A program made the position numbers and the translations under genes. A DNA stretch of 64,000 nucleotides from assembly GCF_014217785.1 (NCBI RefSeq), contig NZ_CP048814.1, positions 3,286,001 to 3,350,000 on the forward strand, written 5' to 3'. Under the pieces are notes generated by a model. It ran no database searches and was not told the origin of the DNA. It was given only the letters and a program-made list of their open reading frames with translations. Every line of letters starts with the position of its first letter. The first letter of the stretch is position 1. Below, one piece after another: positions 1 through 7,161 of the stretch. This DNA is from Rhodococcus triatomae (GTDB taxonomy: Bacteria > Actinomycetota > Actinomycetes > Mycobacteriales > Mycobacteriaceae).

Positions 1-317
1 ACGGCGCAGTGCGCCCCGTACGACGCACCGACTGCGACGATCGGGCCCGGCAGGGACGCGGCGGTGTCCACGCCGTCCACTCCCTCCCCGGCGTAGGGCA
101 CCCAGCGCCCGTCCGAGCGGTACCGCCCGCGGACGTCCTGCACGAGCACCCGGAAACCCCGGCGCGCCCACCACCGCGCCGTATCGCGGTGTGCGGCTGC
201 GTCGTACGGCGTGCGCATCACCACGGTGCCCCGCGGCGTGCCGGAGGCCTCGTACAGGTGACCGGCGAGCAGGACGCCGTCGCGCGTGCTCACCCGGTGG
301 GCGCCCGGGGCCGTCAC
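1..317 (-). CDS. S15/CocE-NonD family hydrolase, N-terminal part (cut by window edge)
   Basis: About 105 N-terminal residues are visible, starting at a GTG that overlaps the TGA of the upstream gene (GTGA), so the two are translationally coupled. The text contains RTPYD near residue 37, then a QDVRGR segment and the nucleophile elbow GASYG near residue 99. Together these are typical of CocE/NonD (peptidase S15, X-Pro dipeptidyl-peptidase-like) alpha/beta hydrolases. The family cleaves peptide or ester bonds with a Ser-Asp-His triad; only the Ser is in view. Lying third after a 40-residue peptide gene, it may process or release a modified peptide. The fold call is fairly safe; the substrate is inference. 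Confidence 0.75.
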   Translation of the reverse strand, partial: MTAPGAHRVSTRDGVLLAGHLYEASGTPRGTVVMRTPYDAAAHRDTARWWARRGFRVLVQDVRGRYRSDGRWVPYAGEGVDGVDTAASLPGPIVAVGASYGAHCA

Positions 318-1033
318 GGGCGCGGTGCCGGTTCGTCGAAACCGAGGACGACGTGTTCGCTCGTCTCGAGCCGCACGTCGTCGTGGCGCCACAGCGTGTA
401 CCGGAGCCGGGCCGCGCGCGCCGGTTCACTCCGCCAGGCACGGACGACGTCGAGTACCCGCCCGGTCGCCAGCACCGTCGCCGCCGTGGAGAGCGTGGTA
501 CCGGAGGGGGACGCGTGGCGGTGCCAGTGTTCGAGTTCCGGCCCCGCGGCTGCGGCCGCATACCTGCGCCGCCGTACCTCGGACGGGGACGCGTCGGTCG
601 CGTCGAGGCGGAGCGGGCCCACCAGGACGAGCCGTTCCTCCACGGTGATGTCGAGAACCGGTAGGGAAGTCTCCTCCCGCGGGGGAGCCGGTGTGTCGTA
701 GGGCGGTGTGGCGCATCGGATCACGAGGCCCGCTGCGGGACCGGTGTCCTCGTTCCGGACGACGGTCACACCGACGCTGACGAGAGCGTCGGCGATCGTG
801 TCGAGCACGGGGTGCGCACCGTCCAGGCGGATCGGAGGGCACCGGTGGCTCCACCGCGCCGCCCACACCTCCGCGTCGTGCCGGGCCACGGCCCCGGCGA
901 CGTCGTCGCTGCGGTCCGCCCCGGCCACGGTCACGCGCAGGAAGGTGCCGTCGGTGCCGCGCACGGTGGCGCCGCGGCCGGGCACGGTGAACATCTCGGG
1001 GCGGCGGGAGATCACCGGGTCGTCGAACGTCAT
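314..1033 (-). CDS. Putative E1-like / leader-peptide-binding protein of a RiPP-type cluster
   Basis: 239 residues. The ATG at 1033 has a good ribosome binding site (CGGAGG, about 6 nt upstream); longer in-frame starts run into the upstream hairpin and peptide gene. I do not recognise a strong signature. The layout, an N-terminal small beta-rich part followed by a VGPL motif near residue 138, an Arg-rich RRRR stretch and a terminal helical/strand section, resembles the cyclodehydratase-partner (E1-like, TOMM leader-binding) proteins of azole peptide clusters. The Cys pairs that bind zinc in many of those proteins are missing. It sits between a 40-residue peptide gene and an S15 hydrolase, which supports a role in peptide recognition. 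A structure comparison could overturn this call. Confidence 0.45.
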   Translation of the reverse strand: MTFDDPVISRRPEMFTVPGRGATVRGTDGTFLRVTVAGADRSDDVAGAVARHDAEVWAARWSHRCPPIRLDGAHPVLDTIADALVSVGVTVVRNEDTGPAAGLVIRCATPPYDTPAPPREETSLPVLDITVEERLVLVGPLRLDATDASPSEVRRRRYAAAAAGPELEHWHRHASPSGTTLSTAATVLATGRVLDVVRAWRSEPARAARLRYTLWRHDDVRLETSEHVVLGFDEPAPRP

Positions 1034-1047
1034 GAATGGCCTCCGGG

Positions 1048-1085
1048 CGCCCGGCCCGTGGACCGAGAGCTCCACGGGCCGGGCG
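1048..1085 (-). terminator. Strong hairpin between peptide gene and modification gene
   Basis: A perfect 15-bp inverted repeat (1048-1062 and 1071-1085) with an 8-nt loop lies 16 nt after the stop of the 40-residue peptide gene and ends just before the ribosome binding site of the next gene. There is no T tract. Precursor peptide genes are often followed by such partial terminators or mRNA-stabilising hairpins, giving more precursor than enzyme. Confidence 0.6.
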
Positions 1086-5369: not shown

Positions 5370-6178
5370 ACTCGTCGGTGCCCGAGCCGCCGCGGCTGCG
5401 GTTCGAGAACGTGACCGCTTCTCGCGGTGGCCGTCCCGTCCTGGCCGACGTGCACCTCGACGTCGAGCCGGGAACCGTACTCGGACTGGTGGGGCCGAAC
5501 GGGAGCGGAAAGTCGACGCTGCTGCGTACCGCCTACCGGGCGGCGCGCCCCGACCACGGCCGGGTTCTCGTCGGGGACACCGATCTGCATGCGCTGCCCG
5601 CGCGGGAGGCGGCCCGCACGGTCGCCGCGATGGCCCAGGACAATCCCGGGGAGTTCGACCTGTCCGTCCTCGACATGGTGTTGCTGGGCCGGACGCCGCA
5701 CACCCGCGGGTCGGGTGCGGACAGTCGCCGCGACATCGACCTCGCGGCGGACGCGCTGGCGCGGGTCGACGCCGAGCAGTGGGCCGCCCGCTCGTTCACC
5801 GCGCTGTCCGGCGGCGAACGGCAGCGGGTGCTCCTCGCCCGCGCCATCGCCCAGCAGACTCCGGTCCTGGTGCTCGACGAGCCCACCAACCACCTCGACA
5901 TCGCCCACCGGTTCGCGGTGTTGGAAACCGTCGTGTCACTGGGCGTCACGACGGTGGTCGCCATCCACGACCTCGACCTCGCGGTGCGGTACTGCGACCG
6001 GATCGCCGTCCTGTACGGCGGCGCACTGCGCGTGGTCGGGCCACCCGAGGAGGTCCTCACCACGGACGTGCTGCGCGAGGTGTTCGGCGTCGACGCCTCC
6101 TTCACCCGTCATCCCGTCACCGGACGATCACACCTGCTGATCGCCGGCCTCCACCGAAAGGACACCCCCGTCCCGTGA
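5366..6178 (+). CDS. ABC transporter ATP-binding protein, FecE/BtuD type
   Basis: 270 residues from GTG 5366, overlapping the permease stop. Walker A GPNGSGKST lies near residue 40, the signature LSGGERQRVLLARA near 150, Walker B VLVLDEPTNHLD after it, and the switch His in IHDLD. The DEPTNHLD form is typical of siderophore/cobalamin importers. It powers the neighbouring FecCD permease at the inner face of the membrane. It is coupled by a 4-bp overlap to the binding-protein gene. Confidence 0.92.
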   Translation: MNSSVPEPPRLRFENVTASRGGRPVLADVHLDVEPGTVLGLVGPNGSGKSTLLRTAYRAARPDHGRVLVGDTDLHALPAREAARTVAAMAQDNPGEFDLSVLDMVLLGRTPHTRGSGADSRRDIDLAADALARVDAEQWAARSFTALSGGERQRVLLARAIAQQTPVLVLDEPTNHLDIAHRFAVLETVVSLGVTTVVAIHDLDLAVRYCDRIAVLYGGALRVVGPPEEVLTTDVLREVFGVDASFTRHPVTGRSHLLIAGLHRKDTPVP

Positions 6179-6210
6179 AGATCCGAACCGCCGTGAAGAT
6201 CCGAACCGCC
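6175..6210 (+). repeat. 18-bp tandem duplication at the start of the binding-protein gene
   Basis: Two identical 18-bp units encode VKIRTA twice and each begins with GTG. The duplication lengthens the basic n-region of the signal peptide without changing the frame. Confidence 0.95.
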
Positions 6211-7161
6211 GCTGTCGGCGTACTGCTCCTCACCACCGCCGCGTGCGGAACCTCCGTGCAGGACGCGAGCACTCCTGCAGCCGCGATCGCCACCGTCGAC
6301 AACTGCGGCCGCACCCTCGAATTCGGGTCCGTCCCCGAACGGGTCGTGAGCCTGAGCCCCTCCCAGACCGAACTCCTCGTCCAACTCGGCGCCGCGGACG
6401 CGATGGTGGGGCAGGCCCAGACGGACACCTCCCCGTTGTCCGCCGACGTCGCCGAGCGGGTTGCCGACGTCCCCGTGCTGAGCACCGACTCCCCGCCGGG
6501 ACGGGAGGTCCTGCTCGAGGTGGCACCCGACTTCGTCGTCGCCCCCACCGAGTACGAGTTCACCGCCGAGCAGGGGTTCGCGAGTATCGACCAGTTGCGG
6601 CAGGCCGGGGCGAACGCCTATGTCGCGACCGGCGGGTGTGCCGAGCGCCGGACCACCGCGACCGTCGACGACCTCTTCACCGACATCACCGACCTGGGAA
6701 TCGTGTTCGACGAGCGTGATCGCGCCACAGAACTCGTCGAGGACGGCCGGCGGCGTCTCGATGCGGTCGCGGCCGACGGGGCGGACCGGCCGGCACGCAC
6801 CGTCGCGCAGGTGTACGTCGAGGGCACCTCGCTGTCGGTGATCGGTGCCGGTGTCGAGGCGGACATCGTCGCCCGCGCGGGTGGCGAGAACGTCTTCCGC
6901 CCCGACGAGTCGATGTTCGACTCCTTCTTCTCCGCGACCGTCGGGCCCGAGGAACTCGCGGCCCGCAACCCGGACGCACTCGTGTTCGCGGTGTCCGGGG
7001 ATGCCCACCGCGAGGCCACCCTGGCGTACCTGCGCGCCACCTTCCCGGACATGACGGCGGTGCAGGAGAACCGGCTGATCGCGGTTCCCGGCGCGGACAT
7101 GTTCCCCGGCACTCTCGGCAACATCGGGGCCGTGGAGACCATCGCACGCGGAATCGGGTGA
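6175..7161 (+). CDS. Metallophore/B12-type substrate-binding lipoprotein
   Basis: 328 residues from GTG 6175. A signal sequence ends in the lipobox TTAAC with lipid-anchored Cys24, so it is tethered outside the membrane. The body begins with the family start [19 protein letters not shown] and contains [14 protein letters not shown], typical of FecB/BtuF/TroA-fold class III binding proteins. The first 18 bp of the gene are duplicated exactly (6175-6192 and 6193-6210), so a second GTG start lies six codons in and either could be used. It is the last gene of the rightward operon, and its substrate is probably the locus's own metal chelate. Confidence 0.9.

What the first reader, a model, noticed from the sequence alone, without database searches (positions are those of the whole stretch)
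1..7161. Zinc-responsive RiPP-like locus with its own metallophore importer
Two divergent arms share one Zur-like box. The left arm holds a 40-residue peptide gene, a hairpin, an E1-like/leader-binding-type protein and an S15 hydrolase; the right arm holds a beta-propeller-like protein, an S9 peptidase and a complete FecCD-type importer. Peptide, modification, peptide cleavage and uptake in one zinc-controlled unit would fit a ribosomally made zincophore, which I do not know to be described. The core enzyme (YcaO or other) is not in view; it may lie left of base 1.
Basis: partly seen in the sequence, partly recalled or inferred. Interest (0 to 1): 0.88.

Follow-up and report, generated by a model that had tools for sequence, protein, structure and literature searches.

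The report
Zinc-switched streptamidine peptide cluster
This is a known kind of bacterial gene cluster that makes a small modified peptide of unknown purpose, and its control switch looks like a zinc-starvation switch kept in most of its relatives, so the peptide probably helps the cell get zinc.

Summary
The core enzymes lie just left of base 1: a SagD-type YcaO, a SagB-like gene and two exporter ABC genes. The 40-aa peptide matches the curated streptamidine-family model (64 bits, cut-off 40). So this is an ami (streptamidine) cluster, a RiPP family published in 2021 with no known role; its authors suspected metal import but detected no metal binding. The class of locus is not new. What I found in no paper searched is the zinc switch. 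The published actinobacterial Zur consensus occurs exactly in the amiA or divergent promoters of 55 of 76 related clusters (68 with one mismatch at most; shuffles 0 and 0.15), in 13 of 18 genera (16 with one mismatch). Where the FecCD operon sits apart it has its own near-consensus box (7 of 7). In this genome weaker boxes precede the azt and znuA zinc importers and a Cys-free L33/S14 operon. AmiX, the propeller, folds most like the zinc chaperone AztD, though sequence does not link them. All 86 core peptides read H-x-S-[A/S]-[S/T]-H. Best reading: a Zur-repressed peptide that is exported, binds zinc and is re-imported. Zinc binding is unproven, and published assays were negative.

The parts
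1..317 (-). amiC: S15/CocE-type hydrolase, 3' part lies outside the window (whole gene L004:15274-16317, window -726 to 317); proposed leader removal
   Evidence: PF02129 1.6e-21, TIGR00976 5e-27; a relative found in 79 of 80 related loci
314..1033 (-). amiB: E1-like partner of the YcaO cyclodehydratase
1049..1084 (-). strong hairpin between amiA and amiB
   Evidence: -41.6 kcal/mol, z -3.5; at least 10 contiguous pairs in the 100 nt after amiA in 71 of 76 loci against 85 of 225 random 100-nt windows of the same loci
1102..1224 (-). amiA: 40-aa precursor, streptamidine family
   Evidence: NF040714 64.2 bits, cut-off 40, E 7.3e-18
1135..1152 (-). codons of the core HLSASH (core of S. albidoflavus streptamidine: HLSATH)
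   Evidence: position from the translation; published core in PMC8442711; all 86 core copies in 76 loci fit H-x-S-[AS]-[ST]-H
1311..1325 (.). Zur box TGAAAACGATTATCA between the two divergent arms
   Evidence: exact match to the published core consensus TGANAANNNTTNTCA; exact in 55 of 76 relatives, 68 with one mismatch at most
1348..2574 (+). amiX: propeller with an AztD-like fold, no signal peptide seen by eye (start codon uncertain: 1336 TTG or 1348 GTG)
2571..4281 (+). S9 prolyl-oligopeptidase-type peptidase, split over two frames here (2571 to about 2975, and 2956-4281)
   Evidence: PF00326 4.3e-27 on 2956-4281; R. rhodnii relative in one frame
4278..5369 (+). amiF: FecCD permease
   Evidence: PF01032 1.4e-94
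5366..6178 (+). amiF: importer ATPase
   Evidence: PF00005 6.3e-29
6175..7161 (+). amiF: substrate-binding protein (Peripla_BP_2)
   Evidence: PF01497 4.4e-21

Best explanation
The locus is an ami (streptamidine-type) RiPP cluster that belongs to the Zur regulon and makes a zinc-starvation peptide, most likely a zincophore. Proposed steps: (1) With zinc plentiful, Zn-Zur sits on the box at 1311-1325 and blocks both divergent promoters [box shown; binding inferred]. (2) When zinc is low, AmiA is made; AmiB and the YcaO AmiD, with AmiE, form azolines at Ser3 and/or Ser/Thr5 of the core HLSASH; AmiC removes the leader [need for AmiB-E shown by published J1074 genetics; chemistry inferred]. (3) AmiT1/T2 export the product [inferred; the published deletion lowers production]. 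(4) The two invariant histidines and the azoline nitrogens hold Zn(II) [inferred, not shown]. (5) The FecBCD-type importer brings the complex in [inferred]. (6) In the cytosol the S9 peptidase and AmiX, a propeller of AztD-like fold, strip and accept the zinc [inferred]. Confidence by step: Zur-regulon membership about 0.93; a role in zinc supply about 0.65; zinc held by the peptide itself about 0.5.
For: Precursor family. YcaO, SagB-like gene and two exporter ABC genes adjacent. Zur box: exact in 55 of 76 relatives, 68 of 76 with one mismatch at most and 76 of 76 with two at most; dinucleotide shuffles 0, 0.15 and 2.25 loci. Exact sites 57 in 30.1 kb of promoter windows against 4 in 1552.6 kb elsewhere; six rearranged motifs 0 in 1.58 Mb. 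A FecCD operon that sits apart has its own box in 7 of 7 loci, one exact and six with one mismatch. Boxes with 2-3 mismatches lie before aztD, between aztB and aztA, before a CobW_C gene, by MRF and the Cys-free L33/S14 genes, and before znuA in this genome. An ArsR/SmtB-family gene directly precedes a Fur-family gene, as in smtB-zur of M. smegmatis (PMC7174638 passages). AmiX fold. Core H-x-S-[AS]-[ST]-H in 86 of 86 copies. Published deletion of amiX did not stop production, so AmiX fits a role after synthesis.
Against: Published: no metal binding by streptamidine in a CAS assay or by LC-MS with Fe, Co, Cu, Mg, Mn, Ni or Zn, and the amiD mutant behaved like wild type under metal starvation. 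No sequence link of AmiX to AztD (one search lists none up to E 1; probability 1.6). No match to AmiX was found in R. rhodnii and three Leucobacter loci with full flanks. Eight of 76 loci have two mismatches in the box (R. rhodnii, Jiangella, three Nocardiopsis, three Streptomyces). The precursor is rare in the sampled genomes: 2 of 28 in the genus and 3 of 396 in the phylum, this genome included. The weaker boxes of this genome are of a kind common by chance: 181 matches with three mismatches or fewer against 34 for the reversed pattern. The S9 gene is frame-broken here. I could not test the box of S. albidoflavus J1074 itself.
Confidence: 0.6

Rival explanations
1. Zinc-starvation signal: the peptide is made under Zur control, exported and re-imported as a messenger that starts a low-zinc programme in neighbours; it need not bind zinc.
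For: Fits the published failure to see metal binding, the lack of antimicrobial activity, and the authors' own suggestion of a signalling or developmental role. Importer and exporter are both present.
Against: A FecCD-type importer with an S9 peptidase and an AztD-like propeller looks like cargo release rather than sensing; no regulator gene lies among the ami genes here (regulators near the relatives were not surveyed).
Confidence: 0.17
2. The importer and AmiX do the zinc work (or import another zincophore), and the peptide is a cytosolic zinc buffer or serves another metal, such as cobalt standing in for zinc.
For: FecCD operons carry the box themselves when they sit apart. Russell et al. 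found that deletion of amiF1-F4 abolishes production, so importer and product are linked in some unknown way.
Against: The linkage to two exporter genes in 73-74 of 80 loci, several of the others being cut short, argues for a secreted product.
Confidence: 0.12
3. The box is read by another Fur-family regulator (Fur-, PerR- or Mn-type), so the cluster is not zinc-controlled.
For: Fur-family boxes resemble each other (recalled); the genome has three Fur-family genes, and of the matched pieces scanned NCBIfam names none as Zur above its cut-off.
Against: In the same genome related boxes precede the azt and znuA zinc importers and the Cys-free L33/S14 operon. Exact match to the consensus derived from znuA of 17 actinobacteria. 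That iron genes of these bacteria use DtxR-type boxes is recalled, not tested.
Confidence: 0.07
4. A weapon made when zinc is scarce, for example a translation inhibitor like klebsazolicin, with the importer for self-recovery.
For: Amidine ring shared with klebsazolicin.
Against: No antibacterial or antifungal activity found in published assays, and streptamidine lacks klebsazolicin's activity; near-invariant core, unlike fast-changing toxins.
Confidence: 0.04

Closest known systems
Streptamidine (ami) cluster of Streptomyces albidoflavus J1074 (PMC8442711)
   Same: Precursor family, core HLSASH against HLSATH, amiB-E, amiT1/T2, Fec-type importer and an extra gene next to the importer (that the published amiX, there called hypothetical or putative oxidoreductase, equals the propeller is inferred from position)
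   Different: Here amiX, an S9 peptidase and FecCD run divergently from amiA and share one box; in most Streptomyces loci seen the importer genes precede amiA on the same strand. The paper does not mention Zur.
Coelibactin, Zur-repressed zincophore of S. coelicolor (PMC5472717 passages)
   Same: Biosynthesis genes under the same type of 15-bp Zur box
   Different: Coelibactin is described as nonribosomal (abstract start in a listing); the ami product is ribosomal
AztABCD zinc importer with chaperone AztD (PMC6689063 passages)
   Same: AmiX has the AztD fold; both lie beside Zur-like boxes in this genome
   Different: AmiX shows no signal peptide by eye and no significant sequence match; AztD hands zinc to the binding protein AztC, whereas here the importer is FecCD-type
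Methanobactin (recalled, no call)
   Same: Ribosomal peptide metallophore with its own importer
   Different: Copper, thioamide/oxazolone ligands, no YcaO
Klebsazolicin and bottromycin (from PMC8442711)
   Same: YcaO-made amidine rings
   Different: Antibiotics; no metal importer is mentioned in the passages read

Membership tests
Streptamidine-type (ami) RiPP cluster | Precursor of the streptamidine family | tested here: met
   NF040714 64.2 bits, cut-off 40
Streptamidine-type (ami) RiPP cluster | YcaO of the ami type next to amiA | tested here: met
   PF02624 1.5e-37, TIGR03604 6e-48; 60-72% identity to the 80 related loci, 76 of which hold an amiA match; no tree was built
Streptamidine-type (ami) RiPP cluster | amiB, C, E, T1/T2 and Fec-type importer | tested here: met
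   AmiE only by position, conservation in 77 of 80 loci and a weak SagB hit (E 0.16)
Streptamidine-type (ami) RiPP cluster | Product with an N-terminal amidine ring | not testable with these tools
   needs chemistry
Zur regulon | Zur box in the promoter, conserved among relatives | tested here: met
Zur regulon | Repression by zinc-bound Zur | not testable with these tools
   needs EMSA, RT-qPCR or ChIP
Zincophore / RiPP metallophore | Secreted product binds Zn(II) and supports uptake | not testable with these tools
   published tests of streptamidine were negative
AztD zinc metallochaperone (for AmiX) | AztD propeller fold | tested here: met
AztD zinc metallochaperone (for AmiX) | Match to the AztD sequence model | tested here: not met
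   no NCBIfam hit up to E 1 for AmiX, while an AztD elsewhere in the genome hits NF038015 at 1e-153; hhalign probability 1.6
AztD zinc metallochaperone (for AmiX) | Pore site of three histidines (His124, 167, 218 in P. denitrificans) | tested here: inconclusive
AztD zinc metallochaperone (for AmiX) | Periplasmic or surface location | tested here: inconclusive
   no signal sequence by eye in the N-termini listed; no predictor was run
E1-like cyclodehydratase partner (for AmiB) | TruD/McbB-type E1-like fold | tested here: met
   over residues 50-238
E1-like cyclodehydratase partner (for AmiB) | N-terminal leader-binding (RRE) domain | tested here: inconclusive
   the N-terminus is short and barely covered by the matches; the paper reports that RRE-Finder finds none

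The most novel reading that the evidence does not exclude
Streptamidine as isolated is the collapsed or spent form of a labile zincophore. The working molecule is an N4 chelator, His-x-(azoline)-x-(azoline)-His, made only under zinc starvation; once the zinc is gone the free N-terminal amine attacks the first azoline and leaves the amidine. This would be, to my knowledge, the first ribosomal zincophore, spread over 18 actinobacterial genera in the loci seen, with a cytosolic propeller of AztD-like fold (AmiX) that takes over the metal. It would explain the negative metal-binding assays, the need for the dehydrogenase AmiE, and the invariant H, S, [S/T] and H positions around a variable second residue.
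Probability: 0.33. Interest if true: 0.88.

Novelty: new variant of a known kind. Interest (0 to 1): 0.74.

Why it matters
Streptamidine-like clusters were reported in over 230 species (PMC8442711) and their role was left open: no metal binding, no phenotype, no activity. A conserved Zur operator names the condition under which they are probably switched on, so earlier tests may have looked at the wrong state or at strains whose other zinc importers hide the effect. It makes the function directly testable with a chelator, a zur mutant and mass spectrometry. If zinc binding is shown, ribosomal peptides would join the zincophores, and AmiX would be a new sort of zinc-handling protein inside the cell.

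Tried and rejected
Sequence link between AmiX and AztD: hmmsearch of the AmiX profile against PDB sequences gave no AztD up to E 1, and hhalign against an AztD-like protein of this genome gave probability 1.6; only the fold links them. Rfam found nothing in 1-12000. Sigma-70 scan of 1200-1400 found nothing. PHROGs found nothing for AmiA. My first Zur scan (26 loci, own consensus recalled and widened to admit the window's box) is circular in part and is not used for statistics; counts rest on the published consensus. Hairpin after amiA: enriched but also common by chance in this G+C-rich DNA (71 of 76 against 85 of 225), so given little weight.

Literature: no held paper has both 'streptamidine' and 'Zur'; two have 'streptamidine' and 'zinc', PMC8442711 and one genome paper (PMC12982422) that I saw in the listing only. 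Of the 12 papers with 'streptamidine' I opened only PMC8442711. Further searches: listings seen whole, nothing on this; 20 of 17,162 listed; 20 of 50 listed. The library lacks most subscription journals and nearly all preprints.

Diverged relatives (16 loci, 11 with two or more YcaO matches): 19 sites with one mismatch or fewer (two of them exact) against about 4 expected, 17 of 19 between genes; suggestive only, because gene starts came from a crude caller.

Of the 12 non-ami places in the genome with two mismatches, three lie at zinc genes; two more that I looked at (3727960 in L096; 3205062 in L100) lie between genes that I did not recognise as zinc genes; seven were not examined. The zinc-gene places with three mismatches were picked by eye from a truncated list.
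Full report
WHAT IS THERE. The window is G000:C1:3286001-3350000 of a 4.77 Mb one-contig genome. It shares its genus with G409, whose contig of 32,327 bases agrees in length and match position with NZ_BCXD01000037.1 of Rhodococcus rhodnii. I fetched the 16 kb to the left (L004; window position = L004 position minus 16000). Directly left of base 1, on the minus strand and tightly packed, are the rest of the S15 hydrolase, a YcaO of the SagD family (window -2159 to -723; PF02624 1.5e-37, TIGR03604 6e-48, below that model's own cut-off), a SagB-like gene (-3151 to -2159; only a weak TIGR03605 hit, E 0.16) and two CydDC-like exporter ABC genes (-4834 to -3167 and -6549 to -4831).

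WHICH FAMILY. The 40-aa peptide reaches 64.2 bits against the NCBIfam model for streptamidine-family RiPPs, whose cut-off is 40. Gene content matches the ami cluster of Russell et al. 2021, PMC8442711, of which I read the Results and discussion and the Conclusions. In that paper: amiA precursor, amiB hypothetical, amiC hydrolase, amiD YcaO, amiE dehydrogenase, amiT1/T2 exporters, amiF1-F4 Fec-type importer, and amiX, a partially conserved gene upstream of the importer. [quoted passage not shown] The authors suspected metal import, but found no binding of Fe, Co, Cu, Mg, Mn, Ni or Zn, no phenotype of the amiD mutant under metal starvation and no antimicrobial activity, and concluded that the role is unknown. 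The word Zur does not occur in the paper.

THE ZUR BOX. The box TGAAAACGATTATCA lies at 1311-1325. An actinobacterial consensus computed from znuA genes of 17 genomes is quoted in PMC5472717 as taaTGaNAANNNTTNtCANta (passage); the core TGANAANNNTTNTCA fits the window's box exactly. With an alignment of 13 AmiD proteins (A1) I searched the GTDB genome contigs: 203 relatives, best 80 kept (L101-L180, 18 genera by record title). An amiA match was in view in 76 of the 80; four loci without it lie on short or cut contigs (L116, L127, L170, L171) and were left out of the promoter count. In the 250 bp before the amiA match, or the 300 bp before a divergent amiX further off, the exact core occurs in 55 of 76, with one mismatch at most in 68, with two at most in 76. 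In 20 rounds of dinucleotide shuffles the means were 0, 0.15 and 2.25 loci. Over 200 permuted palindromes the mean was 0.5 loci; the four highest (16 to 31 loci) share most of their letters with the real box and probably overlap it. Over the 80 loci, exact sites number 57 in 30.1 kb of promoter windows and 4 in 1552.6 kb elsewhere; six rearranged motifs gave 0 in 1.58 Mb. With one representative for each of 18 genera the box holds 1.45 bits per position and its flanks 0.39; since the representatives were anchored on their best box, the first figure is inflated by choice. Exact boxes occur in 13 of the 18 genera, one mismatch at most in 16; R. rhodnii and Jiangella have two mismatches. Loci of one genus are not independent: 40 of the 76 are Streptomyces.

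AN INTERNAL TEST. In seven loci the FecCD operon sits apart, behind the exporter genes on the minus strand. All seven have a box 70-123 nt upstream of the permease match: one exact, six with one mismatch. The importer thus carries the zinc operator where it has its own promoter.

SAME BOX, SAME GENOME. Only the ami site has one mismatch or fewer to my wider pattern. With three mismatches allowed there are 181 matches a strand, against 34 for the reversed pattern, so weak sites need context. Those that I examined and that lie at zinc genes are: before aztD (2 mismatches), between a second AztD-like gene and aztB (2), between aztB and aztA (3), before a CobW_C gene (3, twice), by MRF and the Cys-free L33/S14 genes (3, twice), and before znuA (2) (families). 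A Fur-family gene follows an ArsR/SmtB-family gene, like smtB-zur of M. smegmatis (PMC7174638, passages). This argues for Zur and against another Fur-family reader, but it is not a binding test.

THE CORE. The 76 loci hold 86 core copies (some precursors carry two), and all read H-x-S-[AS]-[ST]-H followed by SNALV (the search asked for HSNALV, so cores with another follower would be missed). Position 2 varies (L, D, A, H, N) while both histidines and both heterocyclisable residues stay. That pattern would suit a chelator. An azoline next to a free amine could collapse to the published amidine (inference; the paper itself discusses an oxazoline intermediate).

DISTRIBUTION. The precursor model finds 2 of 28 genomes in the genus and 3 of 396 in a phylum sample, this genome included; the YcaO finds 34 of 394 in a class sample at E 1e-30, distant clades included. 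Here mshA and gpm are 17.7 kb apart with the cluster between them. In three congeners they are about 2.3-2.4 kb apart, and in R. rhodnii 5.4 kb apart with its ami cluster on another contig. G+C is 73.2% against 69.3% in the flanks. It looks acquired.

AGAINST. The published negative results stand. No match to AmiX was found in R. rhodnii and three Leucobacter loci; S9 was matched in 34 of 80, the binding protein in 39 of 80 and AmiB in 36 of 80, partly because the queries are from one strain and some loci are short. The J1074 promoter itself was not examined; of eight Streptomyces loci with the same core HLSATH, four have an exact box and four one mismatch. The deletion of amiF1-F4 that abolished production may have removed a promoter, since in most Streptomyces loci these genes precede amiA on the same strand.

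VERDICT. Known class, new regulation. Zur control of ami clusters is well supported by comparative evidence; zinc supply is the likely role; zinc binding by the peptide remains to be shown.

Noticed in passing
window 2571-4281: The S9 peptidase gene changes frame around a run of six C near 2975; R. rhodnii has it in one frame. Sequencing error or a recent break, not decided.
   Followed up: partly
L004:5477 to window 7215: The cluster sits between mshA and gpm, 17.7 kb apart here but about 2.3-2.4 kb apart in three congeners; it looks like an insertion, with higher G+C than its flanks.
   Followed up: partly
L061-L065, L181-L191: Diverged relatives, 11 of 16 with two or more YcaO matches and most with a Fec-type importer, also have an excess of Zur-like sites between genes (19 with one mismatch at most, about 4 expected).
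   Followed up: partly
L093 (G000:C1:24000-40000): A zinc island: an AztD and a second AztD-like protein (below the model's cut-off), AztC, AztB, AztA, a P-type ATPase and a CobW_C protein, with Zur-like sites between genes.
   Followed up: partly
L152 at 3082 and 7236: This Streptomyces cluster carries an exact box both before the importer/amiX and before amiA, so importer and peptide may be switched separately.
   Followed up: no
Zur boxes of L101-L180: The box is often followed within a few bases by a TANNNT-like element, mirrored on the other side, as if it lay over two divergent -10 regions (alignment, by eye).
   Followed up: no
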